This document shows, in pieces, positions 5,613 to 29,921 of a DNA stretch of 64,000 nt (its first letter is position 1; every line of letters starts with the position of its first letter). Both the position numbers and the translations under genes were made by a program. Below the pieces are notes generated by a model. The model saw only the letters and a list, made by a program, of their open reading frames with translations, ran no database searches and was not told the origin of the DNA. Origin of the DNA: a methanogenic archaeon ISO4-H5 (GTDB taxonomy: Archaea > Thermoplasmatota > Thermoplasmata > Methanomassiliicoccales > Methanomethylophilaceae); assembly GCA_001560915.1 (NCBI GenBank), contig CP014214.1, forward strand, positions 310,001-374,000, in the 5' to 3' direction.

Positions 5613-5618
5613 ACTAAA

Positions 5619-6611: not shown

Positions 6612-6612
6612 C

Positions 6613-8101: not shown

Positions 8102-8112
8102 ACATACACCAC

Positions 8113-10395: not shown

Positions 10396-10405
10396 AACCG
10401 TTTAC

Positions 10406-10428
10406 GGGGGGAAACCCCCTTACTTTTT
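10406..10428 (+). terminator. Hairpin-T terminator
   Basis: A GGGGG-gaaa-CCCCC type stem is followed by TTACTTTTT, just after the truncated gene. It is similar in form and context to the terminator at 5522-5542. Confidence 0.65.
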
Positions 10429-10501
10429 CACATCCGCCAGCATTCCCCGCCACCACCCACAACAAATAAGATACTTATGCCAATCATCCTATCACGTCAA
10501 C

Positions 10502-11551: not shown

Positions 11552-11570
11552 GAAAGCGGGACATGCCCCG

Positions 11571-11927: not shown

Positions 11928-11981
11928 ATAGTCACCAACGAATCCCGAAGGACAGGTACCGAAGTACCTGCCCCGGAGGAA

Positions 11982-15753: not shown

Positions 15754-16020
15754 AATAATCCATTGGGATGCAGCTATTTAAACATTATTCAGGTATTTCG
15801 ATATTTAGAAAATATATGTAATATTTTCAATATATTATGTAATATATTGAATATTAAACAATGCCTGATGTTATTTAGAGTCAGTTTTAACCCCGTACCT
15901 GATATACTGTATAATAAGAATAGAGGACAACCTGAATCAAAATATTTTACAATCGAACTATCCAAGTCTAAAAGACATCAAATGAGCCAGATAAACAATA
16001 ATGAAAATCCAGCTGTAGAA
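15754..16020. other. AT-rich gap inside the operon
   Basis: A 267-base AT-rich stretch with repeated AATATATT-like runs around 15805-15860. It may contain an internal promoter for the ATPase half of the operon. An overlapping plus-strand frame here is not supported. Confidence 0.4.
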
Positions 16021-16569
16021 TCAATCAAAGGCCGGCGTCGCATTATTGAGCAGATTGAGAAGATATTCGGAATAAAATCCGAACCGAACATCATTGACAG
16101 GGATAATGTCGTTTTCCATTGTATTGTGATCATGACAGTCAGCATTGTAGAGTCCGCGGTCTGCGAGCTCCCTGAACTGCTGAGACTGATCATTGAACAA
16201 TACGAATGCAAGATGCTCAGGATCCACGGTGAAATAGAACATATACCAACGGACTTCGGCATCATACGGTCCTGTTATGTGACGTATGGCTTTGTACACC
16301 GAACGATGGTCCCCGACGCCTCCGGATCTGATCTTGGGACTGCGGCTCCCGCCGTCCAGCATACTGATGGAATCGATGTATACTGGCAACCTATAGATTC
16401 TGCCATCATACCACAGCAGAGCATCGGCTACATGCCGATCGCCAAGGAATGCGAAAGAATGGTTACTAAGTCCAATATGGGTAAGATGTGAAGACCGCTT
16501 CTTACCCAACTCGGGCAAAGTCAGCTTCTTGAAGCTGATAGGCTGTTCCGGGTACATCTGGTAGGGCAT
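16021..16569 (-). CDS. Hypothetical protein following the second methyltransferase
   Basis: A 182-residue protein whose ATG overlaps the stop of the methyltransferase (TAATG). It contains HLTHIGLSNHSFAFL, RHVADALLWYDGRIY and a central RWYMFYFTVD. I do not recognise the family. Its place directly behind a methyltransferase, where restriction subunits often lie, makes a nuclease or specificity role possible but unproven. A plus-strand frame covering the same bases is judged a shadow, because this one continues the operon. Confidence 0.6.
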   Translation of the reverse strand: MPYQMYPEQPISFKKLTLPELGKKRSSHLTHIGLSNHSFAFLGDRHVADALLWYDGRIYRLPVYIDSISMLDGGSRSPKIRSGGVGDHRSVYKAIRHITGPYDAEVRWYMFYFTVDPEHLAFVLFNDQSQQFRELADRGLYNADCHDHNTMENDIIPVNDVRFGFYSEYLLNLLNNATPAFD

Positions 16570-17639
16570 TATGTCTCTAACCCAACATATACGAACAGAT
16601 AATATAAGATTGCGTAAACGGTGTTCACGCTGATTGCGTTGCCTGCTTGACGATAGAGTTGTGCATCGGATACACCCGCATCCCTCGCGTTCTCGACAAA
16701 ATAATCATGGAAACCCTGGAGACGGAATGCTTCCTCGGGCGTCAGGCGACGGATCTTCTGTTCGGCCAACTCCTCTTTGGTATATTTGGTGGCCAAATAC
16801 TCAATAGGATCGTCAGCGTAAATGAAATCATAACTGTAGTAATTATCCTCACATGCACGATGAAGTTTAGCCATCGTAGCCGTCAAGGGCCTGGCTATCA
16901 TCAGGTTGATTTCCGATCTCGACCTAAACGACTTGGAACCGTCGGCCAAAATCGTGGGTTTCACTCTGGCAGAGAGATAATACTTGATATCGAACGTTCT
17001 ATCCAGTATTTCGTATGTACTGTTCTGAATCATGAGGGATGTATCGGACTTGATGCCGTCAAATACCTTCTGAATGAGTCCAGCATCGAATACGAACCCA
17101 TCGAGTTTGTCTTTGCAGGCGAATATGAATATGCGGTTACGGGTTTGTGCCAGACCGAAATTTTTGGTGTTGAATGTATCATAGAGAACAGTCTGATATC
17201 CGCACTCTTTCAGTTTATCTTCAATCACGTCGATGGTCTTCTTATTGTTGTGAAGCTTGATATTTCTAACATTCTCGAGAAGGATGTATCTGGGTTTCTT
17301 CACCCGAAGAATCTGCACAATCTGGAAGAACATGGTGCCGCGGTCATCATCGAAACCCCGTTTCTTACCCATGAGTGAGAAAGGCTGACAAGGGAAACCG
17401 CCTGTAAGCAAATTGAAATCGGGGAGATACTCAATATTGGCCGGATCACTGTTGAATTCGACTATATCTCCCATATCGACTTCTCCGGAGGTGTCGAATA
17501 CAGAGTTGTATGTCTTCTTAGCGGCATCGTCGATCTCACTGTATCCGACAGAAGTCTGAGCGACACCGAAATCTTTCTCGAGAAGTGTCAAAGCCTGGCG
17601 AAAACCGCCGACGCCGGCAAAGAGCTCCAGGTGTTTCAG
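16569..17639 (-). CDS. DNA (cytosine-5) methyltransferase with apparent CTG start
   Basis: A C5 methyltransferase of 356 residues if it starts at CTG 17639. The SAM-binding motif LFAGVGGF, essential to the family, is encoded upstream of the first ATG/GTG/TTG-type codon in frame (TTG 17591). The only plausible start is CTG 17639-17637, which overlaps the upstream stop TGA as CTGA, the same geometry as the ATGA, GTGA and TTGA couplings around it. Other motifs: GGFPCQPFS with the catalytic Cys, ENVRNIK, AQTRNRIFIF and RQAGNAISV. Its target specificity probably differs from that of the neighbouring enzyme. Confidence 0.85.
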   Translation of the reverse strand: MKHLELFAGVGGFRQALTLLEKDFGVAQTSVGYSEIDDAAKKTYNSVFDTSGEVDMGDIVEFNSDPANIEYLPDFNLLTGGFPCQPFSLMGKKRGFDDDRGTMFFQIVQILRVKKPRYILLENVRNIKLHNNKKTIDVIEDKLKECGYQTVLYDTFNTKNFGLAQTRNRIFIFACKDKLDGFVFDAGLIQKVFDGIKSDTSLMIQNSTYEILDRTFDIKYYLSARVKPTILADGSKSFRSRSEINLMIARPLTATMAKLHRACEDNYYSYDFIYADDPIEYLATKYTKEELAEQKIRRLTPEEAFRLQGFHDYFVENARDAGVSDAQLYRQAGNAISVNTVYAILYYLFVYVGLET

Positions 17640-18775
17640 AGATATCTTATCAGCTCCTTTCCGATTGCTTCAGCTAATTTGACAGGGACCGCATTACCTA
17701 TCTGCCTATACCATTTATTCATGGGCCCCTGGAACTCAAAGTCGTCCGGAAATGTCTGTATCCTCGCAGCTTCACGGGGACTCAGGCCGCGCGGCTGAGT
17801 GGGGTGGATGTACATGTTGCAGTCGTTCTGCATATGGGCGGTAATCGTCTTACAGATCGTGTCGGGAACGAGACGATAGTATTTGTCGGTGAAGACATCG
17901 TTACGCCTCTTGTAGGGCATGATATCTGCGATGGACGGGTCAAGAGAATTTGCACCTTGAGGAAGTCTTTTGAAGATCTCGACGTCCCTCGGCTGATTAT
18001 ATCTGTTCTTATGATTGAATAAGACCTCGATCTTCCGATCCCCGTTGATGAAACGCCTGAATTCAGTATCCTTGTAGGTATATCCGATACTGGTGAATCC
18101 GATATCCTCCCCTTCTCTGCCGGTATTGTTCTTTACCGTATTTGGTTTCAATTCCGGCAAGTCGCCAATAGCATCCTCCAAAGTGAATCTGGGACATTCG
18201 GAGGAATACTCGACTATGTTGTGAAGAAGCAACTTGGAAGATAACCCGATACGATTACCGATCAAGATGAATCTGACACGATTCTGGGGAACACCGAAGT
18301 CTTTGGCATTCAGGAGCGTATAATCTACATCGTACTCGTCACCCAGATATGTACGGATATCTTCCTTGATCTCATCTATTTTCTTTGCCATACCCCTAAC
18401 GTTCTCGATGAGGAAGAACTTGGGCCTGACCTCTTTCAAGAACTTGAGATATTCCTTATACAGAACATTACGAGGGTCATCAATGAGACGATGATTCCTG
18501 TTTGCATTGGAAAAACCTTGACAAGGTGGACCTCCGCAGACCAATGCGACGTCTTTGAATCTGTCCGTATAATCGGCGATGTGATTGTTGAGTGTGCGTA
18601 TATCGCCTTCATACACATCATTGGGGGAAATGGAATGATTGCAACGGAACGTCTCACAGGCGTACCGATCAAAATCCGATGCAAATATCAGATTGAATCC
18701 AGCATGTTCCATGCCAAGACTCAATCCTCCGCATCCGGAAAATAGATCAATGAAGTTGTAAGACCCCGAAGACAT
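17636..18775 (-). CDS. DNA (cytosine-5) methyltransferase
   Basis: A 379-residue C5 methyltransferase, first gene of the defence operon. Motifs in order: DLFSGCGGLSLG, CGGPPCQGFS with the catalytic Cys, IENVRGM, PQNRVRFILIG and a C-terminal RQIGNAVPV. The start is taken at ATG 18775; a TTG at 18796 would add seven unconserved residues. A TATA-like box at 18813-18819 puts transcription start about 15 bases upstream. Two methyltransferases in one operon suggest that two strands of an asymmetric site, or two sites, are modified. Confidence 0.95.
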   Translation of the reverse strand: MSSGSYNFIDLFSGCGGLSLGMEHAGFNLIFASDFDRYACETFRCNHSISPNDVYEGDIRTLNNHIADYTDRFKDVALVCGGPPCQGFSNANRNHRLIDDPRNVLYKEYLKFLKEVRPKFFLIENVRGMAKKIDEIKEDIRTYLGDEYDVDYTLLNAKDFGVPQNRVRFILIGNRIGLSSKLLLHNIVEYSSECPRFTLEDAIGDLPELKPNTVKNNTGREGEDIGFTSIGYTYKDTEFRRFINGDRKIEVLFNHKNRYNQPRDVEIFKRLPQGANSLDPSIADIMPYKRRNDVFTDKYYRLVPDTICKTITAHMQNDCNMYIHPTQPRGLSPREAARIQTFPDDFEFQGPMNKWYRQIGNAVPVKLAEAIGKELIRYL

Positions 18776-18812
18776 ACAATCTGTGCCCGTTCTCAAGATA
18801 TCAGGTCTCCTG

Positions 18813-18950: not shown

Positions 18951-18973
18951 GATGAAAAGGGAGCAATGCTCCC
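18951..18973 (-). terminator. Terminator of the virus-like operon
   Basis: The stem GGGAGC-att-GCTCCC is followed by TTTTCATC on the minus strand, eight bases after the last gene of the block that starts at 29863. Confidence 0.7.
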
Positions 18974-18980
18974 TTATTCA

Positions 18981-19316
18981 TCAATCACTGCCAAACAGTC
19001 TCTTCGTCCTCCTGATGAGTCCGTCGAGCCGCCTGACGGTCTTCCTGAGGCGAGGATTGTCCTTGTAGTCCCTCCGGATATTGCAGAGTCCGTCGAGCAG
19101 TTCGGAATCCTTTTGGTAGAGCTGGGACCTTAGGCATTCCCTGGTCTTCGTCCGCATGTCGTCGAAGGAGCCTCCGATAATGTCGGCGGCATCCATGTAT
19201 CCGTACGGATCGATGTCGAAGAGGGCGTCGTCTATATCGTTGACGAGGCGGTCCACCCTGCGTCTACGGTTCATCTCGGCCACGGACCGGACCTGTCTCG
19301 CGATGGGACGGGGCAT
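18981..19316 (-). CDS. Hypothetical basic protein, last gene of virus-like block
   Basis: A 111-residue Arg-rich protein with an N-terminal basic helix (MNRRRRVDRLVND) and a C-terminal basic coiled region ending RRTKRLFGSD. It could bind nucleic acid or be a structural component. It follows the previous gene without a gap and precedes the terminator. Family unknown. Confidence 0.6.
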   Translation of the reverse strand: MPRPIARQVRSVAEMNRRRRVDRLVNDIDDALFDIDPYGYMDAADIIGGSFDDMRTKTRECLRSQLYQKDSELLDGLCNIRRDYKDNPRLRKTVRRLDGLIRRTKRLFGSD

Positions 19317-19670
19317 TCACTTCCCCTCCATGTCGTCGAAGTCCTCGTCAAGCTCCCGGTCGGTGACATCGTGGATGCCGTGGCAGCAACAGTCGCATGA
19401 TCCGCAGCAGCCTTCATCACCGGCAGAAAGCTCCTCGGGACAGATCACGGAGTTCCCTATGCCTGTGGTCTCCTCAATTCCGTCGGCGATGGTAAGGAGG
19501 ATGTCGTCTACCTCGGCCTCGTCGAGGTCTTCCTTCATGGAGCATTCGTCGATGAGGGAGTTAATCAGGACGTCGATGGCCGTACCGCAGGGAAGACCCA
19601 GATCGTCGAAAAGGTCCTGGACCTTCTCAACGCATTCCTCCACGCGGAGGGCATACTCGTCGGGATTCAT
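19317..19670 (-). CDS. Hypothetical acidic protein with cysteine cluster
   Basis: A 117-residue protein, helical and strongly acidic, with a striking CCGSCDCCCHGIH motif near residue 90, which suggests metal or Fe-S binding. It overlaps the upstream gene by four bases (ATGA) and abuts the next. No family recognised. Confidence 0.6.
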   Translation of the reverse strand: MNPDEYALRVEECVEKVQDLFDDLGLPCGTAIDVLINSLIDECSMKEDLDEAEVDDILLTIADGIEETTGIGNSVICPEELSAGDEGCCGSCDCCCHGIHDVTDRELDEDFDDMEGK

Positions 19671-19894
19671 TCCTCCGCCTCCCTGATGAATTCGGAGATC
19701 TCCGCGACATCCTCCGCCTCTCCGCGGAGACCGTCGTCAAGCATGGAGGAGAGTACTGCCTCGCAGATGTCTGCGAAGGTCTTGTAGAACACCGCCTTGG
19801 GGATGTCGAGTCCGAAGACGAGCTCCCTGTTGCCGATCTGAATGCTGGCCCTGACAGCTACGCTGTCCCTGTTTCCTATGAATTCCTTATTCAT
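19667..19894 (-). CDS. Small hypothetical protein
   Basis: A 75-residue soluble acidic protein; the first half is beta-like (VAVRASIQIGNRELVFGL), the second helical. It is first of the three small genes after rep. A ribosome-binding-like AGGATAC lies just upstream of its ATG. Function unknown. Confidence 0.6.
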   Translation of the reverse strand: MNKEFIGNRDSVAVRASIQIGNRELVFGLDIPKAVFYKTFADICEAVLSSMLDDGLRGEAEDVAEISEFIREAEE

Positions 19895-20078
19895 GGTATC
19901 TTGTATCCTCCCGTCTCTGAGGCGGACGGGTTACCATGAACGGCCGTCGGCTGTCCTTTCGGATCTGCATGCCTGGGTCTTCCCGGTTCCTTTCACGGAT
20001 ATGCTGTCAGCAGTGATCCCGGACCGGGCGGTTCCTGTGCGTTATAACATTATTTTGTTATTTTCTGGTGAATGGGTT
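19895..20078. other. Gap after rep with a hairpin; possible replication origin
   Basis: This is the only sizeable gap within the block. It holds a stem CCCGTC-tctgaggcg-GACGGG (19910-19930) and, near 20045-20060, an AT-rich AACA...TGTT inverted repeat. HUH replicons often place the nick site near rep in a hairpin, but I cannot identify a nick motif. Confidence 0.35.
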
Positions 20079-21542
20079 TTATGCTTCCGCGGTCTCTCCG
20101 GCGGGCTTCTCCCCGTAGGCTTTCCTCTGCCTCCTGAGGACGGAGGCCTCATCATCGAAAGGCCCGTCGCAGATGATGTCGTTGTTCTGGGGCAATCCGA
20201 ATTCGAGTGTGGATGCGGCGAATGGAAGATGGCGTGCGAAGTCGGCGAGATTCATATCCGCCTCTCTCAGACGGTTCTTGTATCTCAGGAAGACAGTCTT
20301 CCAGAGCTGGATACTGCTGCCGAAGACTACGATGGCATTGTCCTGTATGTAGCGGACCATCTGTCCCTGATGATCGTCAGGACCGTCATACACCCTCAGC
20401 AGAGCTCCGCATTCCTCGCAGACACGGATCTTATACTGACGGTAATACCCCACAATCCTGATGGCCTTCCTGGATGCCCCGCCCCAGTAACGGATCTTGA
20501 GCTCCGTGCATAGAGGTCTCTTGGTCCATTCCAGCCAGTCAACTCCGGAGTAATCGCCGGCCAGACGGCCTTTCCCCCTGAGCAGGGCCTCATAATCCTC
20601 TTCGGTAGGATTGTCGGGCCATGCCAGGTCGAAGAATCTCTGTTCCCAGTCGATGTCGTCGGGATCCACCTCGGCGATGCCGATCGATGCATGCGTCAGA
20701 AGGTATGCCGCCGTATGCCTGATGGAGCGGATCTTCTCGCGGGGGTGGACCTTCTTGATGACCCATCCCGGATTGGCCTTTCTGAACGCAGTCGTATCTA
20801 TACGGCCGTAGCAGAGGATATGGAAGTGCGGGCTGAACGCCCACATATCCTCCTTCTGCCTCCACAGGTGCGGGACAGTGACGCCGGCCAGAGCCCCGAA
20901 GGCGGTCATGGAGTTGTCGATGTATCCGCAGAGGTCATCGAATTCAGGCTTGGTCTGAACCATGCGTTTGGCAAGTTCCTGGGGAGGGCTGACCACCCAG
21001 TGACCTATGTCCCCAACACGGGTGCCGGCCTTTTCGGAGAGCACCTTGAAAGACAGAAGCTGGTGTTCAACCTTTATTCCCTGCTTGATGCAGGTATCAT
21101 TCATGCATTCGGGGCATTTCCTGCTCCAGCAATGCTTACGCTTGCCCTTGCAGTGATGCTCCCTGTCCGATGGACAGGCAACATAGACGATTCCTCCCTA
21201 GAGGTTCCTGATGAATCCGCAGCCTTTATCCCGGGGGCGGTTCAGATCATGACCGGGCATCTGCCAAGAGATATACTGATGGTATTCCCACGGCCTTTCC
21301 TGACCGTCGCCTTCCTGACTACTTCCTGAATCCCCTGAGTACCCCCTGTTCAAATCTAAGGTACCCATGGCAGGATACGAAGGATCCTCTACAGGCAAAT
21401 GGAGTACATATTCCACGACAGGGTGTTGGGAGAGAGCTTTCTGCACCGCGAGATGATTGATCTCGGCAATCTCGAGCTTACGCTCGAAGGAACGGGTGCG
21501 TGCCTCTTCGGCTCTGATGTCGTAGTATTCCAAAGGATTCAT
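20079..21542 (-). CDS. rep: HUH replication initiation protein with in-frame TAG
   Basis: One frame of 488 codons interrupted by TAG at 21198-21200 (codon 115). Codons 121-150, just after the TAG, encode a zinc-finger-like cluster (VACPSD, HHCKGK, KHCWSRKCPEC, NDTC) with no ATG, GTG or TTG in frame before it. The HUH signature is SPHFHILCYG (239-243 region), and the Tyr motif is AAYLLTHAS (Y280), as in archaeal rolling-circle Reps. More Cys pairs (VCEECG) follow. Before the TAG is a 114-residue polar region. Alternatives: termination at TAG followed by GGGAGG and ATG 21184 opening a 27-codon frame that is coupled (ATGA) to ATG 21104, giving a Rep without the finger. Start 21542 overlaps the upstream stop. 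Confidence 0.7.
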
Positions 21543-22102
21543 GGAAGATCGGGGGAGGTTTCGGAGGCTCCCTGCTCCTGGTCATCTGGGGAGGCCGCGC
21601 CGTCGCCGAAGGCTCCGCCGCGGAAGGACGGCCGGCGGGCTTGGACGTGCGTCCGAGCGCCCGCGCGGCCTTTATTGGGTGCCGCCTGACGGCGGCCGTG
21701 GGGAATGGGGAAGGGTGGTGGACCGGGGGAGGACGGGGGCTCCGACGGATCACGGCCTCCCGCAGCACCCCTCCTGTCCGCACGGCGCTCCGTCCTTCCG
21801 TCGGAGATGTATGTCTCCACGGGTTCCGAAGGCGAAACCCACGAAGCGTAGTGGCTGAGACGGTCCAGGTACTTCGCCCTGGAGATCTCGGCCGCCATCG
21901 TCCGCTGGATATCGAATCCCTCGAGGAACCTCACCAGGGGGTGGTCGGAGACGCCCATCACCGCGTAGAACGCACGGCGGCGGAACATCAGGTCCGCATC
22001 CTCCGGATTGGAGAACGCAATCTCCGCCGGAAGGGGGACAGAGGACGCCAGCCTCGCTGACAGCAACCTGTCGGTCTCTTCGTCGCTGGTGAAGTTCAGC
22101 AC
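21539..22102 (-). CDS. Hypothetical protein with Pro/Arg/Gly-rich tail
   Basis: A 187-residue protein. The first 110 residues are helical and acidic; the rest is a low-complexity, very GC-rich tail (for example PSEPPSSPGPPPFP) that is probably disordered. The start is taken at GTG 22102, behind GGAGG and overlapping the end of the ATPase gene; upstream in-frame starts lie inside the ATPase coding region. No family recognised. Confidence 0.55.
   Translation of the reverse strand: MLNFTSDEETDRLLSARLASSVPLPAEIAFSNPEDADLMFRRRAFYAVMGVSDHPLVRFLEGFDIQRTMAAEISRAKYLDRLSHYASWVSPSEPVETYISDGRTERRADRRGAAGGRDPSEPPSSPGPPPFPIPHGRRQAAPNKGRAGARTHVQARRPSFRGGAFGDGAASPDDQEQGASETSPDLP
21700..21740 (+). other. G-rich tract with G-quadruplex potential
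   Basis: On the plus strand four or more runs of 3-5 G (GGGG, GGGG, GGG, GGGGG, GGGGG) occur within about 40 bases, inside the disordered tail of the gene at 21539-22102 and 160 bases upstream of rep. Confidence 0.5.
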
Positions 22103-22716
22103 AGTTTCGCCTCCCTGAACATCTTGGAATGGCGGTCGTCCCACCAATCGGTCACAGGGAGACCTATGGTCTCGTTGAACCTGGGGAAGAAGGTCCAGCT
22201 CCTCGGATCCGATTCAGGATCTATCCCGCACGCCCTGTCGATGTAGAAGTTGGCAAATGCCTGATCGACCCTGTGTTCGGGTCTCTCGTACTTCATATCG
22301 GCACCGTGCATCATCTTGTGGCAGACCACGACGTCCTGACTCCTCATGAAGGAGACATCGCACTCGCTCAGGTTCTGCACCGTGAAGGCAACGATGTTGC
22401 TCCTGTGCGAAATGATTCCGAGCCACTTGGAGAGCGTCGGGTCTTTGGAGGATCCGCGGGCGTTGAACACCCTCGAGACATCCTCGATGACGCATATCGA
22501 ACCCACCGGGACCTCGGAGGCCTTGGAGACCTTCGAGTAGTTGTCAGGGAAGATCGAGATATCGAAATCCATCGGGTCCATCATGCACACGGGACGTCCG
22601 GGCTGCCATAGTGCCAGCATGCTGTGGAGAGTTGCCGATTTGCCGGTCTTCCCGGATCCGACGACGGCGATGATTCCGTGTTCCATCCCGCTGATGTAGT
22701 CGGCGGTCCTGCTCAT
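22096..22716 (-). CDS. P-loop ATPase, candidate virion packaging or assembly ATPase
   Basis: A 206-residue protein. Walker A is at 20-27 (GSGKTGKS), Walker B-like at about 73-79 (ICVIEDV), followed by a Gln/His-containing sensor region (IISHRSNIVAFTVQNL). The size and order resemble FtsK/HerA-type packaging ATPases and Zot-like assembly ATPases of small viruses. The start ATG 22716 overlaps the stop of the upstream membrane protein gene (ATGA). The pairing with that membrane protein suggests action at the cell envelope. Confidence 0.65.
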   Translation of the reverse strand: MSRTADYISGMEHGIIAVVGSGKTGKSATLHSMLALWQPGRPVCMMDPMDFDISIFPDNYSKVSKASEVPVGSICVIEDVSRVFNARGSSKDPTLSKWLGIISHRSNIVAFTVQNLSECDVSFMRSQDVVVCHKMMHGADMKYERPEHRVDQAFANFYIDRACGIDPESDPRSWTFFPRFNETIGLPVTDWWDDRHSKMFREAKLC

Positions 22717-23513
22717 TCCACACCGCCTCCCATGTCCTCCGCGGGGAAACCATCGGCGTATCCGTCGGGATAGCCCTTGGGCGGGACGTCGGAGGGTGTG
22801 GTACCAGGATTCCTCCTGCCGGCCACTCCGTGCTTCCCGAAGTCCACGTCCTTGAATCCCATGACCTCGGCGAGGCCGTCGAGGTTGTCTCTTACGGATT
22901 TCCTCGCGTAGCCGAGACCGATGATGTGGGGATGGCTCATGAGTTCGAGATTCTCCTCGAGGACCTCGGAGAGGGTATCGTCCCATTTGACGAAGGCATC
23001 CTCTCTGGTCATCACCTCGATTGGGTTGAGCTCATGCACCCAGCCGTAATCGATGACCCCCTTGTCGGGATCGAGGTTACGGGCCAGATAGAGCGGGAAT
23101 CCGCTGAGGGTGTGGTAGACGACATTGTTGCCGGACTGGTTGAACTGGGCGTATACCTTGTCGGGAATGAAGAGGACCCTGAAGGTGTGGTTGTCCACAT
23201 CGAGAAGGGTGACGTACCGTCCAGAAGGACGGAAGAGGTTCTCCACCGTCCATTGGGCGAATCCCCATCCGAGGATGGGTCCGAGGATCAGCGGCCACCA
23301 TTCTCCGAAGAAGGCCACGGCCTCGTCGAAGGCGAAGATACAGACCAGGTAGGAAACGATGAGCCCCCCGTAGAGGACTATCGATCTGCCATTGGCCAAG
23401 ATCCGGCCGAGATACAGGTCGTACCATCTCCCGGAAGGTGCAGGAGATGGAGCACCCGTCTCTTCGGAGTATCCGTCAAAACGGTCGGTGCCGGTTTCCT
23501 GTTCAGAGGACAT
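22713..23513 (-). CDS. Membrane protein of the virus-like block
   Basis: A 266-residue protein with two hydrophobic segments (about 43-62 and 70-90, the second with PLILGPILGWGFAQW), then a large soluble domain and a Gly/Pro-rich tail. The start is set at MSSEQETG, 11 bases inside the preceding gene. It is likely a membrane anchor or assembly partner for the ATPase encoded next. No family recognised. Confidence 0.6.
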   Translation of the reverse strand: MSSEQETGTDRFDGYSEETGAPSPAPSGRWYDLYLGRILANGRSIVLYGGLIVSYLVCIFAFDEAVAFFGEWWPLILGPILGWGFAQWTVENLFRPSGRYVTLLDVDNHTFRVLFIPDKVYAQFNQSGNNVVYHTLSGFPLYLARNLDPDKGVIDYGWVHELNPIEVMTREDAFVKWDDTLSEVLEENLELMSHPHIIGLGYARKSVRDNLDGLAEVMGFKDVDFGKHGVAGRRNPGTTPSDVPPKGYPDGYADGFPAEDMGGGVE

Positions 23514-23613
23514 CCCTGACCTCCGTCTCCGCCTGTTCGCGGTAGACATTGAAGAAATACCTGAACGTGACGGCGAACCCGACAATCATCCCGAAGATGA
23601 CCCAGACAGTCAT
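23503..23613 (-). CDS. Tiny single-span membrane protein
   Basis: 36 residues: MTVWVIFGMIVGFAVTF forms one membrane span, followed by a charged tail. The start is chosen at ATG 23613, one base after the preceding stop, in line with the tight spacing of the block; the longer frame from 23715 would lie over the previous gene. Confidence 0.55.
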   Translation of the reverse strand: MTVWVIFGMIVGFAVTFRYFFNVYREQAETEVRDVL

Positions 23614-23614
23614 A

Positions 23615-23788
23615 TCAGGCACCTCCGAGACCGTCGCGGAAGATGAATCCCGCAGCGAAGCAGATGAGTCCCGATACGGTGAGGAATCCCCAGATGTGAT
23701 CCGAGCCGATGGCATCGGCCGCCATGGGTGCGAGCCACGCGCTGCCTGCCAGGAGGGAGATACCGGCTATGATATGCCTGAGCTTCAT
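23615..23788 (-). CDS. Small two-span membrane protein
   Basis: 57 residues with two hydrophobic stretches (HIIAGISLLAGSAWLAPMAA and IWGFLTVSGLICFAAGFIF). The ATG at 23788 is one base after the preceding stop. It is a candidate minor virion protein. Confidence 0.55.
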   Translation of the reverse strand: MKLRHIIAGISLLAGSAWLAPMAADAIGSDHIWGFLTVSGLICFAAGFIFRDGLGGA

Positions 23789-23789
23789 G

Positions 23790-24359
23790 TCAGTACCTCC
23801 TCGGTCTTGCACCGTCAGAGAACGAATTGATAGCCAGCAGGGTCAGGAAGAAGATACTGGCGAAGATCAGGACGAACTTAGCACCGCTCTCGTAGGCAGA
23901 AGCGGAAACCGAGAAACTGCAAGAGGGAGGCTTGGTGAAGTCGTCCTCTTCTTCATTCTCGTAGGATCCGCGTCCGTTCTCCGCCACACTGACGTAGCCC
24001 CAGGGATGGGCCGGTTGGTAGTCCGGAGCGAGTACGCCTGCAACGTATTCGTCCTCATCGAAGGACCCGCCCATCTCGGAACCGGGAACGTCGGTGACCG
24101 TGGGCAGTTCTCCGCCTTCGTAATAGTCAGCGGCCTGCTGGGGAGTCACGGAAGGAGTGATTACCTTGGGAGTCTCGGGCTGGACCTGGCGGGGGCTTTC
24201 GTCCCCGTCGGAATGGGTCCACTGGTAGAAGGGCGAGTCCTCGCTGATACCCATGTTGTCGGAGGCCATGGCCCCGGCGATCATGAGTCCTGCGGTGATG
24301 GCAATGGCGGCTGCCCAACCGGGAGGACCGAGGAGAGCGAGTCCGAACTGGAAAGCCAT
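23790..24359 (-). CDS. Membrane-anchored hypothetical protein
   Basis: A 189-residue protein with an N-terminal hydrophobic segment (WAAAIAITAGLMIAGAMA), an acidic Pro-rich middle and a C-terminal span (FVLIFASIFFLTLLAI) followed by Arg residues. The stop/start overlap with the upstream gene is TGATG. Probably a virion membrane or spike-base protein; no homologue recognised. Confidence 0.6.
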   Translation of the reverse strand: MAFQFGLALLGPPGWAAAIAITAGLMIAGAMASDNMGISEDSPFYQWTHSDGDESPRQVQPETPKVITPSVTPQQAADYYEGGELPTVTDVPGSEMGGSFDEDEYVAGVLAPDYQPAHPWGYVSVAENGRGSYENEEEDDFTKPPSCSFSVSASAYESGAKFVLIFASIFFLTLLAINSFSDGARPRRY

Positions 24360-24697
24360 CAGTATCTCCTCCTTCCGAACTCCCTCCTTTCCCTGAGGGA
24401 ACGCCTAAGGGAGGAGACCGATGTGATGACAAGTGCCAGACATGCGATTACGGCGATACCGAGGATCATGGCGGAAGTGTCCGCATCGACTCCGAGGATC
24501 TTGGATGTGGCATTGACGGTGCTGTTCCACGTATCGATGATGGCCACTCCGACCGCCGAACCGGCTGCGATCCTCACGATGGGGAGTTCCGTAATGAATG
24601 CCGCCACCTTGGAGGTCTTGGCACCGGCGGCTCCCGCCTCGACGATCTTCACGCCCTTGCCCAGTCTCAGGAACTTCAGGAATCCCAGAGAAGGCAT
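24359..24697 (-). CDS. Small two-helix membrane protein, candidate major virion protein
   Basis: A 112-residue protein: basic N-terminus, a hydrophobic segment about 40-57 (IVRIAAGSAVGVAIID), a second about 74-93 (SAMILGIAVIACLALVIT), then an Arg-rich end. The size and two-helix layout resemble major structural proteins of several membrane-containing archaeal viruses. This is an inference from layout only. Confidence 0.5.
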   Translation of the reverse strand: MPSLGFLKFLRLGKGVKIVEAGAAGAKTSKVAAFITELPIVRIAAGSAVGVAIIDTWNSTVNATSKILGVDADTSAMILGIAVIACLALVITSVSSLRRSLRERREFGRRRY

Positions 24698-24698
24698 C

Positions 24699-25211
24699 TT
24701 ACCGCCTCCTTACGGGACGGATGACCGAAGGATCGTTCTTCCCGACCGCATAGGCGAGAATCATGAACATGAATCCGAAGGACAGGAGGAGAAGCTCGTC
24801 GGAGTATCCTTCGAACAGTCCGTACTCCTTATCCTCGATGGTCAGCGGGAGACCGGAGACCCTGGTGCCGCCGAAGTTCATGGCGGAGCACAGGACGTTG
24901 TAGGTCCCGGGCCCCGCGTAGGTCTTGTAGACCTCGAAAGCATCGGCCGAGGTGCCGTCTCCGAAGTCCCAATGGACCGAGTCTGCATCCTCTCCCGTGT
25001 ACTGGAAGAGGTATGTCTTGGCGGTGCTGTGGACATTCTGGGTCTGTCCCTCCCCGGAGGTCTCCGAGCTGAAGCTCACGGTCTCGTTGTCGGGTTCGTG
25101 GTTGTACGAGAGGTACAGCGAACCGAACAGGCAGACCGCTGCCGCCATGATACAGGCCGCCCTCGTCAGAGGGACGGTCCTGATGCTGTTTCCTCTCTTC
25201 GTCAGCATCAT
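24699..25211 (-). CDS. Membrane-anchored protein with PKD-like domain
   Basis: A 170-residue protein. There is an N-terminal anchor (about 18-37), one PKD-type immunoglobulin-like domain (VHWDFGDGTSAD, then YAGPGTYNV) and a C-terminal span (LLLLSFGFMFMILAYAVG) with an Arg tail inside. It is extracellular by topology, so a candidate receptor-binding or surface protein. The start ATG 25211 overlaps the upstream stop. Confidence 0.65.
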   Translation of the reverse strand: MMLTKRGNSIRTVPLTRAACIMAAAVCLFGSLYLSYNHEPDNETVSFSSETSGEGQTQNVHSTAKTYLFQYTGEDADSVHWDFGDGTSADAFEVYKTYAGPGTYNVLCSAMNFGGTRVSGLPLTIEDKEYGLFEGYSDELLLLSFGFMFMILAYAVGKNDPSVIRPVRRR

Positions 25212-26404
25212 ATCACCGGCGTAGCGAGGATTCCTCCGGTGGGGACGCTCTCGAAGGCGAGACGGTTCACTACATGAATACCAAAAGTCTGAGAATCAGA
25301 AGACACTCCGTTAGTGGCATTCACGGTCACGGTATAATCTCCCGCAACACTGGGGGTCCCGACAAGAGTAGATCCGCTCAAAGTCAGCCAGCTCGGTCCA
25401 GTGAACGAAATCGTCGTACCGGCAACATCGGTAGTTATCGCTCTGGAAAAGGAATTACCGACAACGATGTCCGCATCATCTCCGGAAGAGGTGATATTGA
25501 CAGGAATCGGAGTCCACTGGGCGACAGCATTCACGGAGGTATTGGCAGCGACGCTGACCATCTGACCGGGCTGGTAGATTGTGTTACCGACCTTCCAGCC
25601 GGCGAAGTTGTATCCCGCCTTGGAAAATCCGTTGGAGGCAAGAGTCACGTTAGTGCTGCCCGAACTTGAATCGGTCACCTTGGTGTCCGCCATGGAACCT
25701 GTTCCTCCGTTGGCGGAGTAGGTCACGGTATGGGTGTATTCGGGTGAGACGACGGCGAGGGTTATCCTGCCGCTGTAGTCGGTGATCCCGTCATCCACAA
25801 AATCGTAATGGGTGACCCAGTCGATGTAGATGGTAGTGCCAGCGGGAGCATTGACTGTGCCGCTGAGACTGCCGTTGTTCAGTGTGAGGCCGACACCGGG
25901 CGTGACATAGGTCACCTTCTCGTAGTCGAGATAATAGGTCTCGTTGTCGGTATCATTGTATGTCGCTGTGAAGGATACGACGGTACCGTTCCTTACATAG
26001 ACAGTGGGGGTGACCTCGTAGAAATAATTCTCAACCTTTCCCGTAGGCCAGTGCTCGCTGGTATGGAGTTCCAGATAACAACTGCCTCCATTGGTATTCT
26101 GGATTGTGTACAAATCATATGTGACATACTTTCCGGCGGACATCTGAGGGATGGTGACCGTTGCAACATGGGTGCTCGTATTCAGCACGGCATAGGGGCA
26201 TCCGGATATACTGGAAACATCGGTGATGGTAATCACATCGCCGGGAACGGGGCTGAGCTCGATCTTGCGGGTGGAGTTCGCCGAATACGAATAGCTGGCC
26301 GCGTCGGAATCATCGGCGAATACCGGGATGCACATGAAGGCCATGGAGACCATCAGCATGACGGAAAGTCCCGCCACGGCCTTCTTGGAACAGATGTCCG
26401 ACAT
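25208..26404 (-). CDS. Secreted surface protein with InlB-type and Ig-like repeats
   Basis: A 398-residue protein with a signal peptide (KKAVAGLSVMLMVSMAF, then an Ala-rich cut site near residue 31). It has many Asn-X-Ser/Thr sites, an InlB/Listeria-Bacteroides repeat (VTYSANGGTGSM, then GYNFAGWKVG), a putative-Ig (He_PIG-like) domain and a C-terminal FESVPTGGILATPVI. The same C-terminal motif ends the protein at 27097-28095. It is likely a virion spike or adhesin exposed outside the cell. Confidence 0.7.
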   Translation of the reverse strand: MSDICSKKAVAGLSVMLMVSMAFMCIPVFADDSDAASYSYSANSTRKIELSPVPGDVITITDVSSISGCPYAVLNTSTHVATVTIPQMSAGKYVTYDLYTIQNTNGGSCYLELHTSEHWPTGKVENYFYEVTPTVYVRNGTVVSFTATYNDTDNETYYLDYEKVTYVTPGVGLTLNNGSLSGTVNAPAGTTIYIDWVTHYDFVDDGITDYSGRITLAVVSPEYTHTVTYSANGGTGSMADTKVTDSSSGSTNVTLASNGFSKAGYNFAGWKVGNTIYQPGQMVSVAANTSVNAVAQWTPIPVNITSSGDDADIVVGNSFSRAITTDVAGTTISFTGPSWLTLSGSTLVGTPSVAGDYTVTVNATNGVSSDSQTFGIHVVNRLAFESVPTGGILATPVI

Positions 26405-26405
26405 C

Positions 26406-27092
26406 TCACTTCCTCCTCAGGAGTCCGATTACGATGAGACCGCCGATGAGCAGTCCGATGATCTTCCAATCGAATTCGATGTTGGATGTAGGTTCAGGGT
26501 CAGGCTCGGGTTCAGGCTTGGGATCATCAACACCCCCGGAAGCAGGAGTCCACTTGGCGTAGAGGGTGGTGTGGCCGGTAACTCCGTTGTTGAAGTCGTA
26601 CCTCTCGGTGCAGGCGGAGTCGGTGAACCAGCCTCCGAAATCATATCCGTCTTTGACAGGATTTTCAGGAACGGTAACGCGCTGACCGAGCTTGACGGTC
26701 TGCACGGGGATGTGGGTTCCGCCGTCGGTAACGAAGGTTATCTCGGGGGTTCCGAGGATCTCGACCTTCAGCTGAGAAGTGTAGGTTCCGACGGTGTTGG
26801 ATACGATCTGGGTGACGGTGTACAGTCCCTTGGCGGGGAATACGATGCCCTTGGGATTCCATTCGTCGGAGGTGGCACGGGTGCCGTCGGGGTTGTCGAA
26901 ACCGAAGTCCCAGAGAATAGTCTGAGCGTCGGTTCCTTTGAAGGCGAAATCGACCGTGTATGTGTAGTAGGAAACGGTTCCCTGATCGTTGTCCACTTCG
27001 GCAGAGGCCATGGAGGCCCCCGCTGTAAGCATGACGAAGACCGCAAGTATCGCACCCGCGGGGATTCCGATCTTGGTTGCAGCAGAGACCAT
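26406..27092 (-). CDS. Membrane-anchored surface protein with PKD-like and InlB repeats
   Basis: A 228-residue protein: signal/anchor segment (residues 8-30), a PKD-like domain (ILWDFGFDNPDG, then FPAKGLYTVTQIV), an InlB-type repeat (ITFVTDGGTHI, GYDFGGWFTD, TLYAKWTP), an acidic Pro-rich stalk (PKPEPEPDPEP) and a C-terminal span ending in RRK. The layout is that of a stalked surface protein anchored in the membrane. Confidence 0.7.
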   Translation of the reverse strand: MVSAATKIGIPAGAILAVFVMLTAGASMASAEVDNDQGTVSYYTYTVDFAFKGTDAQTILWDFGFDNPDGTRATSDEWNPKGIVFPAKGLYTVTQIVSNTVGTYTSQLKVEILGTPEITFVTDGGTHIPVQTVKLGQRVTVPENPVKDGYDFGGWFTDSACTERYDFNNGVTGHTTLYAKWTPASGGVDDPKPEPEPDPEPTSNIEFDWKIIGLLIGGLIVIGLLRRK

Positions 27093-27096
27093 GGTA

Positions 27097-28095
27097 TCAG
27101 GCCGCCGTAGCGACGATTCCGCCGGTGGGGACGCTGTCGAAGGAGAGCTTCGCCACGGAGGTGATCGTCAGGGAGCATTCGCAGGTCTGTCCGGAAGCGG
27201 TATGGGTAGCAACCGCAGTCACGGTGGAAGCACCCATGGCAGTGGAGGTACCGGTGACGGTACCGTTGCTGTTCAGGGTGAGTCCGCTGGGCATTGTGCT
27301 TCCGCTCTTGAGGGCGAAGGTCACACCGGAGGTGATGTTGCAGACCAGCTTGTTGTAGTCGGCATTGGAGGAATCGGTGGTCACGGCGGTGCCGTTGATC
27401 ACGTAGAGATCCTTTCCGTTGGAGTTCACACCGGAGTTGTTCTGGGCGATGGCGGAGAATACCTTGAGAGACAGGCTCTTCTGGATGGACTGTCCGGAGG
27501 CCAGGTGGGTGATGGTCACCTTGGGGGTGTAGGACTTTCCGCTGGTGGTTCCGTCACCGGTGATCTTGCCGCTGATGACTCCCGTGGAGGAGTTGATGGT
27601 CAGGCCGGCAGGAGCTCCGCTGAGGGCATAGGTCACACCGCTGAAGTTGGATCCGACAGAGAACACGGGAGTATCTCCAACATAGGTGTTGGAGTTGTCC
27701 ACGGTGAAGGTTCCCGTCAGGGCATCATACACGGTGAAGTGGATGTACTGCTCCGCGTGCTGGGTAGGTTTAGTGGTATCCGCCTTGATGGTCAGATCGT
27801 AGGTGGCGGTACCTCCCGACTGGGAAACAGCGGGAGCGGTTCCGGAGATGACTCCGTTGGTCACGGTCAGCCAAGTGGCGGCTGTACCGGCAAGCGTGAT
27901 GGTAGCTCCGCTGAGGTTCACCGAGGGGGTGTAGCTGTATGCCGCACCCTCGACGAGACCGACGTTGTAGGTCTGTCCCGTGGTGTTCTCGGCGGAAGAA
28001 CCGTCTGTGAACGTGACCGCACCGAGGCAGGCGCAGAGCATGATAGCTACTGCCGCAGCTGCTTCAAATGCGGTCTTCCTGTTTTCGAAAATCAT
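27097..28095 (-). CDS. Secreted repeat protein, candidate spike or fibre
   Basis: A 332-residue protein with an N-terminal hydrophobic segment (FEAAAAVAIMLCACLGAV), then three or more putative-Ig (He_PIG) domains with the hallmark G-x-I-S/T-G (GVISGTAP, GVISGKIT, GTVTGTST). It is rich in Thr, Ser, Asn and Gly. It ends in LSFDSVPTGGIVATAA, matching the C-terminus of 25208-26404. A plausible abundant surface protein; the motif may be a processing or assembly signal. Confidence 0.7.
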   Translation of the reverse strand: MIFENRKTAFEAAAAVAIMLCACLGAVTFTDGSSAENTTGQTYNVGLVEGAAYSYTPSVNLSGATITLAGTAATWLTVTNGVISGTAPAVSQSGGTATYDLTIKADTTKPTQHAEQYIHFTVYDALTGTFTVDNSNTYVGDTPVFSVGSNFSGVTYALSGAPAGLTINSSTGVISGKITGDGTTSGKSYTPKVTITHLASGQSIQKSLSLKVFSAIAQNNSGVNSNGKDLYVINGTAVTTDSSNADYNKLVCNITSGVTFALKSGSTMPSGLTLNSNGTVTGTSTAMGASTVTAVATHTASGQTCECSLTITSVAKLSFDSVPTGGIVATAA

Positions 28096-28104
28096 TGTAT
28101 CACC

Positions 28105-29166
28105 TTACTGGTGGTTCCTTCCTCCGCTGAAGCGGGTCTTGAAGAACATCTGGGGGAAACTGCGAACGACCTTGGTGATCGCGATGCGGTCTCCTGTAGC
28201 GGAGTTGGGATTAGTGAGGACCTTGAGGGCATAGCTGGAGTTCTGGGCCCTGCTGCGTCCTCTTGCGGAGGTGAAGAAGTGCTTCTCCTTGCCGGACATG
28301 GCATCGAACTCTTCAGGCCTCGCATAGGCCCTGTTGGACCTGAACCTCATGGCGGATTCGTCGGAGACGAACATCTCGGGGTGTTCGTTCCTGAACTTCG
28401 CGAGGTTCTTCTTGGTGGTCTCGTTGGACTCGGGGTTGCCGATGACGCTCATGAAGTATCTGGTCCTCGCAGATCTGGACCTGATGTTGCCCATGGTCTG
28501 GGCGATGTCGTTGGCAGTCCTCGCCTCGGAGAGAGGCCTGGAGTTCCTCTTCTTGAAGGAGTCGATCTGCTTCTCGGAGGCGAAGAGTCCGGGATTGAGC
28601 TTCCTGAATCCCTCGAGGTTGGCGACGGTCTCGGGGTTGCTGTCCTTGTTGCCCATCACAGCGTTGAAATACTGTGTCCTGCGGACATTGGTACCGAGTC
28701 TGTCCATGATCTGCTGGATCTCGCCGACTGATCTGGCTTCGGAGACAGGTTTACGGACACGGGTCTGTCCGGACCTGTTCCTGCGGTAGTTGCCCCTGTA
28801 GCGGGAAACACCTGCGGCACCGAATTCGCCGTAAGCATCTCTGGCATCTTCGTAATCTCCGATCTGGATCGATCCGATGCCGGAGGCTCCCCTGTTGGCA
28901 TTCCTCTTCCAGGACTCGGAGTTCCTCCACTTCTCGAAGGAAAGACCCCTGTTCTGCATGAAGGAGAAGGCACTGTCAGGAGCGAACTCATCCTTGTGCT
29001 CCCTCTTGTAGTACATGAGGAAATCAACGACCTCATCGGGAGTAGAGGTGTTGGTGAGGCATTTGTTCACATAGCGGGTACGCTGAACGGGGCTCATCTT
29101 GGCGAGTTTGCCCCTCAGCTCATTTGCGGAAGGGATCTTCCTTCCGGAACTGGTTTCATAAGGCAT
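28105..29166 (-). CDS. Basic protein with four degenerate 70-residue repeats
   Basis: A 353-residue Arg-rich protein. About four repeats of 60-75 residues can be aligned: each has an R-T-R-Y/T-Q-Y-F-like helix, a hydrophobic V/L, then N-x-x-(S/T)-x-(P/S)-E/D, a helix ending F, and a phrase such as HPEMFVSDES or NPGLFASEKQ. Between the first two is a Gly/Arg-rich stretch (GVSRYRGNYRRNRSGQ). It is probably a nucleic-acid-binding structural or condensing protein. The start MPYETSSGR is chosen over 29226, which lies inside the upstream gene. Confidence 0.65.
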   Translation of the reverse strand: MPYETSSGRKIPSANELRGKLAKMSPVQRTRYVNKCLTNTSTPDEVVDFLMYYKREHKDEFAPDSAFSFMQNRGLSFEKWRNSESWKRNANRGASGIGSIQIGDYEDARDAYGEFGAAGVSRYRGNYRRNRSGQTRVRKPVSEARSVGEIQQIMDRLGTNVRRTQYFNAVMGNKDSNPETVANLEGFRKLNPGLFASEKQIDSFKKRNSRPLSEARTANDIAQTMGNIRSRSARTRYFMSVIGNPESNETTKKNLAKFRNEHPEMFVSDESAMRFRSNRAYARPEEFDAMSGKEKHFFTSARGRSRAQNSSYALKVLTNPNSATGDRIAITKVVRSFPQMFFKTRFSGGRNHQ

Positions 29167-29185
29167 GATAAAACCTTCAAATTGT

Positions 29186-29479
29186 TTACAATCCGGCATT
29201 TCCCCCTGCCGGAGGGGTAGATCCACCGCAAGGCTGGGGTGGGAACAAAGTGGTCTGCCTTGCGGTGCGGCAGTTACCTGCCGGATTTCTGCTCCAGGAT
29301 GCGAGGGTGGTGCGGCGGCGGCCTTCCTCCCTGTAGACTACGACGGAAAGCACCTGGGGGTCGGAGGTAAGGACCCTCATGCGCTCTATCGCAGAACCCT
29401 CGCTCAGCTCAGTCTCGGTACGGATGTACTGCTGGGAAAGAGGATTGCTGCGGACATATTCCACAGTGAAGCCGGCCAT
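29186..29479 (-). CDS. Hypothetical protein
   Basis: A 97-residue protein, second gene of the block: an N-terminal beta/alpha region (GFTVEYVRS, RMRVLTSDPQVLSVVVYREEGRRR) and a low-complexity Pro/Gly-rich end. Six bases separate it from the first gene. No family recognised. Confidence 0.5.
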   Translation of the reverse strand: MAGFTVEYVRSNPLSQQYIRTETELSEGSAIERMRVLTSDPQVLSVVVYREEGRRRTTLASWSRNPAGNCRTARQTTLFPPQPCGGSTPPAGGNAGL

Positions 29480-29485
29480 AGACCA

Positions 29486-29863
29486 TCACTGTCCCTTGAA
29501 TCCGGACATCAGTTTCTTGGCATTCTCCACGTCATCGTAGACGGTGGAAGAAACGATCTCGACGCCGTCGAGTGCCTCAGCCATCTTCACAGCGAAGTCA
29601 GAGAAACTCCTCCAGAACTTACCGGAAAGAGGGAGGTCGACGAAGTGGCCACTGAAGGTAGCAGTAATCTTGGGAACAGGATCCCTGTACGCTCCAGTAT
29701 TGCTGTCGAAGGTGGAGACTGCCTTCAGCCCGATGTAGACCTGCCCCTGAGAGTAGGACATAATCGGGACTTTCTTGGTATCATTGGGAGCTTCAGTCTT
29801 GACTGCTCCGAATGCGTTCTTCAGTTCTGCGCTAAGCTCAAATTTTTTTTGGTTTGCTGCCAT
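29486..29863 (-). CDS. First gene of the virus-like block, hypothetical
   Basis: A 125-residue protein with a beta-rich core (IMSYSQGQVYIGLKAVSTF, KITATFSGHFVDLPLSG) and a C-terminal helix. A single-stranded DNA-binding (OB-like) role would fit a rolling-circle replicon but is not shown by any motif. The good ribosome-binding site GGAGAG is 7 bases before ATG. A TATA-like box is at 29914-29921. Confidence 0.65.
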   Translation of the reverse strand: MAANQKKFELSAELKNAFGAVKTEAPNDTKKVPIMSYSQGQVYIGLKAVSTFDSNTGAYRDPVPKITATFSGHFVDLPLSGKFWRSFSDFAVKMAEALDGVEIVSSTVYDDVENAKKLMSGFKGQ

Positions 29864-29913
29864 ATATATCTCTCCTACCGTGACGACGGTGGTGATGTGG
29901 GGTTTTGGAAGAG

Positions 29914-29921
29914 GTTTAAAC
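29914..29921 (-). promoter_or_regulatory. Probable promoter of the virus-like block
   Basis: GTTTAAAC (palindromic) lies 51-58 bases before the first ATG of the block, a normal distance for an archaeal TATA box with a short leader. Confidence 0.45.

What the first reader, a model, noticed from the sequence alone, without database searches (positions are those of the whole stretch)
18951..29921. Compact virus-like block with no recognised relatives
About 18 genes in one direction, mostly overlapping, with one promoter and one terminator. Content: HUH Rep, P-loop ATPase, four to five small membrane proteins, PKD/InlB/Ig-like surface proteins, a basic repeat protein. No capsid of known type, integrase or tail gene is seen. 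It may represent an undescribed lineage of membrane-containing archaeal viruses, or a virus-derived vesicle or conjugation-like system.
Basis: partly seen in the sequence, partly recalled or inferred. Interest (0 to 1): 0.85.

Follow-up and report, generated by a model that had tools for sequence, protein, structure and literature searches.

The report
Pleolipovirus-related provirus in rumen methanogen
The block is the particle-building and replication part of a larger mobile DNA element, integrated at a tRNA gene of a gut methanogen, that is distantly related to the membrane-vesicle viruses of salt-loving archaea but shows no sign of their hallmark fusion spike.

Summary
The gene block is real: 18-19 tight minus-strand ORFs at 18,981-29,863. 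It is not a stand-alone unit. It is one end of a 32.7 kb integrated element bounded by a 21-bp direct repeat: one copy in a tRNA-Glu gene 2.6 kb left of the window, one at 30,100. An integrase lies next to the tRNA, and about 20 kb of restriction/defence cargo lies between.

The module recurs in 23 of 147 genomes of the order, in up to five copies; 14 of 21 relative stretches show a repeat anchored in a tRNA gene. Ordinary searches find no relatives, but the membrane protein beside the ATPase matches pleolipovirus ORF7 (profile probability 95-98%, reciprocal HMM hits). The ATPase (VP8 position) and ORF6-like proteins of other elements agree, weakly. VP4 fusogen and VP3 were not detected; PKD/InlB/Ig surface proteins are present. 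Best reading: a temperate, probably vesicle-type virus element related to pleolipoviruses but outside the family as defined. Particles are not shown; overlap with published Methanomassiliicoccales proviruses could not be checked.

The parts
29486..29863 (-). g01, 125 aa, conserved first gene, no transmembrane segment
   Evidence: best-matching ORF in 8 other loci
29186..29479 (-). g02, 97 aa
   Evidence: relatives in 2 loci
28105..29163 (-). g03, basic repeat protein
   Evidence: cluster of 11 element loci incl. the window (cluster 3)
27097..28095 (-). g04, signal peptide + He_PIG Ig domains, no C-terminal anchor, ends in conserved F.S.P.GG tail
26406..27092 (-). g05, signal peptide + PKD + Flg_new (InlB-like) + C-terminal TM
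25208..26404 (-). g06, signal peptide + Flg_new, no C-terminal anchor, same C-terminal tail as g04
24699..25211 (-). g07, PKD + C-terminal TM
24359..24697 (-). g08, small membrane protein
23790..24359 (-). g09, N- and C-terminal TM, 189 aa; possible positional counterpart of pleolipovirus ORF6 (not shown by sequence)
23615..23788 (-). g10, small membrane protein
23503..23715 (-). g11, small membrane protein; true start probably internal, so the overlap with g10 is smaller
22713..23513 (-). g12, membrane protein homologous to pleolipovirus HRPV-1 ORF7
   Evidence: hhalign 95.0-97.7%; soluble part alone 94.5%; reciprocal hmmsearch
22096..22716 (-). g13, HerA/FtsK-superfamily P-loop ATPase in the VP8 position
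   Evidence: AF2 pLDDT 87.4; B204 Z 14.0, Zot Z 11.7
21539..22105 (-). g14
   Evidence: cluster of 11 element loci incl. the window (cluster 4)
20079..21542 (-). Rep (HUH by motif), one 487-codon frame interrupted by in-frame TAG at 21198-21200
   Evidence: PylS in genome
19667..19894 (-). g17
   Evidence: ORF only
19317..19670 (-). g18
   Evidence: ORF only
18981..19316 (-). g19
   Evidence: relative in L033
30100..30120 (.). right copy of the 21-bp att direct repeat; the left copy is 2,578 bp before the window, in the 3' end of tRNA-Glu(CUC)
1..18796 (.). cargo part of the same element: three C5 DNA methylases (5619-6611, 16569-17591, 17636-18796), restriction enzyme (6613-7701), Vsr (7682-8101), GmrSD_N (8113-9882), MORN protein (10502-11551), PDC-M33A/B/C-like genes (11982-15490)
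   Evidence: content matches PMC5011839

Best explanation
The block is the morphogenesis and replication module of a 32.7 kb temperate, virus-like integrative element distantly related to pleolipoviruses. A tyrosine integrase inserts and excises it at the 3' end of a tRNA-Glu gene through a 21-bp repeat. After excision the Rep would start rolling-circle replication. Membrane proteins, an ORF7-like membrane protein and its partner ATPase would build a membrane-vesicle particle carrying PKD/InlB/Ig spikes. Shown here: repeats, integrase, conserved gene order, ORF7 homology, patchy spread. Shown by others, for an element that I equate with this one: excision and loss in culture. Inferred: Rep activity, vesicle particles, spike function, infectivity.
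For: 21-bp repeat in tRNA-Glu and at 30,100, 32,678 bp apart, with a PF00589 integrase. Genome paper of ISO4-H5: excised 32 kb element with 3 adhesin-like genes, 3 C5 methylases, integrase, mismatch endonuclease and MORN protein, matching. ATPase in 30 places in 23 of 147 genomes, own included; tRNA-anchored repeats around the ATPase in 14 of 21 relative stretches. ORF7 homology: hhalign 97.7% over 191 columns, 95.0-97.4% in three subsets, 94.5% for the soluble part; 60 column shuffles scored at most 22.1 against 87.6. hmmsearch with g12: the seven hits listed among six-frame ORFs of 14 pleolipo-/thalassapleovirus records are all ORF7s; an ORF7 model lists seven g12s first. The tree of g12 does not follow the hosts.
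Against: No VP4 or VP3 match. The ATPase-VP8 (45%) and ORF6 (54%, or 10% without marine rows) matches are weak, and a host ABC ATPase matches VP8 at 88.5%. The two marine g12 rows alone match ORF7 at 20.2% and the window's clade at 1.5%. In one search one of 39 column shuffles scored 130.2 for ORF7 and one of 39 scored 134.0 for ORF6; the ORF7 outlier did not recur in 60 new shuffles, the ORF6 control was not repeated. At 32.7 kb the element is larger than pleolipovirus genomes. No spacer of the host array matches better than shuffled controls. No relatives in viral contigs; none in phage records but one chance hit. The Rep is interrupted by TAG.
Confidence: 0.72

Rival explanations
1. A vesicle-borne plasmid-like or defence-carrying integrative element that kept a virus-derived membrane module but makes no infectious particle.
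For: No VP4/VP3 match; about 20 kb of defence cargo; 32-37 kb forms in 6 elements incl. the window's.
Against: 9 of the 14 relatives with mapped ends are only 9.2-15.2 kb, so the module fills most of them; relatives of the surface proteins g04-g07 are seen in 18 of 29 loci, some of which are cut by contig ends.
Confidence: 0.17
2. An archaeal inovirus-like filamentous virus: Zot/pI-type ATPase, RCR Rep and small coat proteins with one membrane segment.
For: Zot N-domain (2r2a) is the top profile match in PDB sequences (E 7.7e-4; named); Pfam Zot matches 5 of 20 members, best E 0.001; fold Z 11.7; the best BFVD model by E-value is an Inoviridae Zot; archaeal inoviruses are reported (PMC6813254, passages).
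Against: Among solved structures the fold is closer to STIV B204 (Z 14.0) and equal to HerA and TcpA; the neighbour g12 is pleolipovirus ORF7-like; no TM in the ATPase; PHROG matches to M13 pI (E 0.026) and Zot (0.16) come from one member each.
Confidence: 0.08
3. A decayed or domesticated provirus, kept for its adhesins.
For: In-frame TAG in Rep.
Against: Reported excision; no other broken gene was noticed in the block; PylS is present and the paper counts 46 genes with in-frame amber codons in this strain.
Confidence: 0.03

Closest known systems
Pleolipoviridae (HRPV-1, HRPV-6, HHPV-1, His2 and others)
   Same: Membrane protein ORF7 is homologous; gene order of membrane proteins, ORF7-like, ATPase; Rep present; integrase/tRNA provirus state known there; replication genes swap between lineages
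   Different: No VP4 or VP3 found; PKD/InlB/Ig surface proteins; Rep not detectably related to six pleolipovirus Reps; methanogen host; window element 32.7 kb with defence cargo
Thalassapleoviridae (AvPV1 and relatives)
   Same: Non-haloarchaeal relatives of pleolipoviruses, temperate, some with RCR Rep
   Different: In the four records examined the best match to g12 was 7.5% and their NTPase matched the ATPase at 1.7%; they have VP4
Methanomassiliicoccales proviruses with VP4-like fusogens (Medvedeva et al. 2023, cited in PMC10919331)
   Same: Same host order; pleolipovirus relationship
   Different: VP4 not found in these elements; I could not read that paper, so overlap is open
ISO4-H5 32 kb mobile element AR505_0313-0358 (PMC5011839)
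   Same: Very likely this very element (size, content, genome size)
   Different: Described there only as a mobile element with hypothetical and adhesin-like genes, in the passages that I read
Archaeal inoviruses (PMC6813254)
   Same: P-loop ATPase of related fold, small membrane proteins, RCR
   Different: No membrane-anchored ATPase here; ORF7-like neighbour

Membership tests
Pleolipoviridae | Core gene HRPV-1 ORF7 | tested here: met
   hhalign 97.7%, three subsets 95.0-97.4%, reciprocal hmmsearch
Pleolipoviridae | Core gene VP8 (NTPase) | tested here: inconclusive
   45.4%; top four hmmsearch hits are VP8s (E 0.0012-0.053), but a host ABC ATPase scores 88.5% to VP8
Pleolipoviridae | Core gene ORF6 | tested here: inconclusive
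   54.1% with marine rows, 10.4% without; one shuffled control scored 134.0; in the window g09 is only a positional candidate
Pleolipoviridae | VP4 spike/fusogen, V-shaped fold | tested here: not met
   Sequence-profile level only: best of the element ORF clusters 11.3% over a TM segment; VP4 profile over 147 genomes best E 0.03, none in these elements. No fold test of the spikes
Pleolipoviridae | Internal membrane protein VP3 | tested here: inconclusive
   Best match 16.6% over 19 columns; proteins too short and divergent for a firm negative
Pleolipoviridae | Genome 7-17 kb | tested here: not met
   Window element 32,678 bp; of 14 relatives with mapped ends 9 are 9.2-15.2 kb and 5 are 32.4-36.8 kb
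Pleolipoviridae | Pleomorphic vesicle virion, no nucleocapsid | not testable with these tools
   needs electron microscopy
Pleolipoviridae | Host in class Halobacteria | tested here: not met
Inovirus-like (Tubulavirales) | Zot/pI ATPase with membrane anchor | tested here: inconclusive
   Zot fold similarity Z 11.7, profile E 7.7e-4, but no TM in the ATPase
Inovirus-like (Tubulavirales) | Filamentous virion with small single-TM major coat protein | not testable with these tools
   g10/g11 are small TM proteins, role unknown

The most novel reading that the evidence does not exclude
A VP4-less branch of pleolipovirus-related vesicle viruses spans Methanomassiliicoccales and other Thermoplasmatota orders. 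It has replaced the fusogen with multi-gene PKD/InlB/Ig spikes. The anchorless spikes are tethered to anchored partners by a PKD domain split across two neighbouring genes, the first strand being donated in trans. Some members have grown to 32-37 kb integrative elements that ship defence islands between gut methanogens, and the window's Rep is read through UAG as pyrrolysine.
Probability: 0.2. Interest if true: 0.8.

Novelty: new variant of a known kind. Interest (0 to 1): 0.62.

Why it matters
It ties an element reported to excise in a culturable enrichment of a rumen methanogen to the pleolipovirus lineage and shows which part of that lineage's machinery, the ORF7-like membrane protein and the adjoining ATPase, persists when the hallmark fusogen cannot be found. 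That makes two things testable: whether ORF7/VP8 is the true core of vesicle-virus assembly, and how a vesicle virus enters cells without VP4. It also gives gut methanogens, which have few known viruses and genetic tools, a candidate natural gene carrier that brings defence genes.

Tried and rejected
Viral-contig scans with ATPase, Rep and profile A1 found no relatives; tblastn against phages gave none for ATPase and one chance hit for Rep. Terminal repeats in nine small contigs or stretches: none, so no evidence of circular contigs. Att search too close to the block found nothing; the att pair appeared only after the genome paper pointed to a 32 kb unit. No shuffled control was run for the tRNA-linked repeats, the shortest of which is 14 bp. 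Flank comparison with relatives at cfbC did not define the border. Own CRISPR array, 34 spacers: best matches no better than shuffled controls; a DNA search of the block over 147 genomes was not sorted for spacers. Weak g12/VP4 profile hits in G125 and G129 read as host genes; those in G114, G046, G043 and a second in G056 were not examined. Rep against six pleolipovirus Reps: no relation. AF2 of a fused spike fragment: mean pLDDT 62, motif region about 45-51, so the split-PKD idea is untested. The inovirus reading was considered because of Zot matches and put below the vesicle-plasmid rival. Charybdis elements (PMC12324425, parts 1-3 of 7 read) are different: 4.6 kb, no such genes described there. 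Papers: whole text PMC12642806; parts 1-2 of 3 PMC10919331; passages PMC6813254, PMC8727293, PMC13107129, PMC12451623, PMC10599561, PMC10804542; passages and one section PMC5011839; Medvedeva 2023 not held. No paper naming this element a virus was seen in the listings of searches, which show only the best-ranked papers; that library lacks most subscription papers.
Full report
WHAT IS THERE. The minus strand from 29,863 to 18,981 carries 19 tightly packed ORFs with GC well above the left neighbourhood. Two of them, 21,198-21,542 and 20,079-21,197, are one frame broken by TAG. In 16 relatives the same protein is uninterrupted; a 17th, in L034, was left out by a length filter. Pfam and PHROGs recognise only the surface repeats: He_PIG, PKD and Flg_new. 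The Rep call rests on an invariant PHFH motif in 17 of 17 rows and no family match.

THE REAL UNIT IS LARGER. The genome has 1,937,883 bases. The ISO4-H5 paper (PMC5011839; [quoted passage not shown] It lists three adhesin-like genes, three DNA-cytosine methylases, one integrase, one mismatch endonuclease and one MORN protein. The window shows the same set: methylases at 5619-6611, 16569-17591 and 17636-18796, Vsr at 7682-8101, MORN at 10502-11551, and the surface proteins in the block. I found a 21-bp direct repeat with one copy in the 3' end of tRNA-Glu(CUC), 2,578 bp left of the window, and the other at 30,100, 32,678 bp apart. A PF00589 integrase (E 3.3e-16) lies beside the tRNA. That this is the paper's element is my inference; I did not see its coordinates.

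RELATIVES. The ATPase finds 30 places in 23 of 147 genomes of the order, including the own one, with five in one genome. A g12 profile finds the same 23, plus four genomes with weak hits: two read as host genes and two not examined. In a sample of 389 genomes of the phylum, 22 match an ATPase profile: 15 of the order's 23, three outside it with clear matches (E 7.6e-13 or better), and four with only short weak ones. One of the three (L104) carries a CRESS-type Rep (Viral_Rep E 6.4e-6) and another (L105) two PF00589 proteins, with the same kind of run of membrane proteins before the ATPase. I take these as marine Poseidoniales-like hosts from recall of such genomes only. In 14 of 21 relative stretches a repeat of 14-42 bp ties a tRNA gene to the far side of the ATPase, giving elements of 9.2-15.2 kb (9) and 32.4-36.8 kb (5). 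An integrase homologue was found in 12 of 21, one of them partial. Seven stretches showed no such tRNA repeat; several of these end near the element. One locus (G080) is identical to one of G082 over 11,784 bases and is not independent. A g12 tree does not follow the hosts: a family-f5 element pairs with a family-f1 element at 97/95, and at least two genera host distant lineages; some branches are long and ten forks are open. Two relatives have names: isolate RUG10898 and MAG UBA71.

LINK TO PLEOLIPOVIRUSES. I aligned 28 g12-type proteins and 10 pleolipovirus ORF7s. hhalign gives 97.7% over 191 columns; 97.4% without marine rows, 96.6% for the window's clade, 95.0% for the middle group, but only 20.2% for the two marine rows alone, which also match the window's clade at only 1.5%. 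Soluble part alone: 94.5% over 121 columns. Reversed columns scored 23, and 60 column shuffles at most 22.1, against 87.6. In one search one of 39 shuffles scored 130.2 for ORF7 and one of 39 scored 134.0 for ORF6; I could not explain these, and the first did not recur. The 170 element ORF clusters, less those averaging under 60 aa, were compared with ten pleolipo-/thalassapleovirus families. Apart from g12 itself (97.4%) and one fused g12 ORF (71.5%), the only pair above 21% was ATPase-VP8 at 43%. The window's own g12 was not among the ORFs called there; it is in the profile. hmmsearch with g12 lists seven ORF7s (E 3e-6 to 0.009; list cut at seven), and an ORF7 model lists seven g12s first. 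The ATPase-VP8 match (45%) is not evidence by itself, since a host ABC ATPase reaches 88.5%, but the four best hits of the ATPase model are VP8s. The ORF6 match needs the marine rows (54% with, 10% without). VP4 and VP3 gave nothing convincing. Order and neighbours agree with ORF6-ORF7-VP8 of HRPV-1.

ATPASE. AlphaFold2 with 20 sequences: pLDDT 87.4. Closest solved fold: STIV2 packaging NTPase B204, Z 14.0, rmsd 2.8, 162 aligned. HerA (11.8), Zot N-domain (11.7), TcpA (11.5) and FtsK (10.4) follow. In the viral model library an Inoviridae Zot leads by E-value. This is a HerA/FtsK-superfamily motor; the fold does not separate virus types.

HOW IT PROBABLY WORKS. Integration and excision at tRNA-Glu by the integrase; rolling-circle replication from Rep; assembly at the membrane by the ORF7-like protein and the motor; release in vesicles with PKD/InlB/Ig spikes; defence cargo to pay for residence. 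Only the first step has outside support (excision). The Rep TAG may be read as pyrrolysine: the genome has PylS (275 bits), the paper counts 46 genes with amber codons, and TAG ends only 1 of 49 long ORFs of the window, one that lies antisense to the block. A nonsense mutation is not excluded, and the position is not conserved.

SPIKES. In the window's clade and its kin, 18 of 23 proteins of the g04-type cluster end in a tail of the form F.S.P.(G/A)G. These 18 lack a C-terminal anchor, while the next gene often has a signal peptide, a PKD domain and an anchor. In L050 tail and PKD sit in one chain. I read this as one PKD domain split over two genes, so that the tail tethers the anchorless spike. 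The structure prediction was not good enough to test it.

PLACE AND NOVELTY. By the ICTV profile (PMC12642806, whole text) Pleolipoviridae share VP3, VP4, VP8, ORF6 and ORF7. Here ORF7 is met, VP8, ORF6 and VP3 are inconclusive, VP4 was not found, and host and size differ; I do not file it in the family. PMC10919331 states that Methanomassiliicoccales proviruses with VP4-like fusogens are known (Medvedeva 2023, not readable), PMC8727293 counts one provirus in UBA71, and PMC10804542 mentions a 15,055-bp prophage in LGM-DZ1. Overlap is open, hence 'new variant of a known kind' and a middling-high score.

Noticed in passing
window 21198-21200: In-frame TAG splits the Rep gene; the host has PylS, so pyrrolysine read-through is possible.
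   Followed up: partly
window 11982-15490: Three genes match PADLOC candidate defence set PDC-M33A/B/C (E 1e-95, 4e-31, 1e-25) near two C5 DNA methylases, inside the mobile element.
   Followed up: partly
window 5619-8101: C5 methylase, NgoFVII-type restriction enzyme and Vsr: a type II restriction-modification set carried as cargo.
   Followed up: partly
L050:11626-13233 and C-termini of window 27097-28095 and 25208-26404: Conserved C-terminal tail F.S.P.GG of anchorless spikes looks like the first strand of a PKD domain whose rest is in the next gene.
   Followed up: partly
L104: Related module in another Thermoplasmatota family pairs with a CRESS-type Rep (Viral_Rep plus helicase), showing replication-module exchange.
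   Followed up: partly
G098:C1:799-1570, G077:C1:21377-22003, G092:C33:31195-31559, G027:C139:573-938: DNA like the block's Rep (66-69% identical) in genomes where the ATPase search found nothing: possible Rep-only elements or remnants.
   Followed up: no
L039 and L040: 11,784 identical bases between two different species genomes (G080 and G082): recent transfer or a misbinned contig.
   Followed up: no
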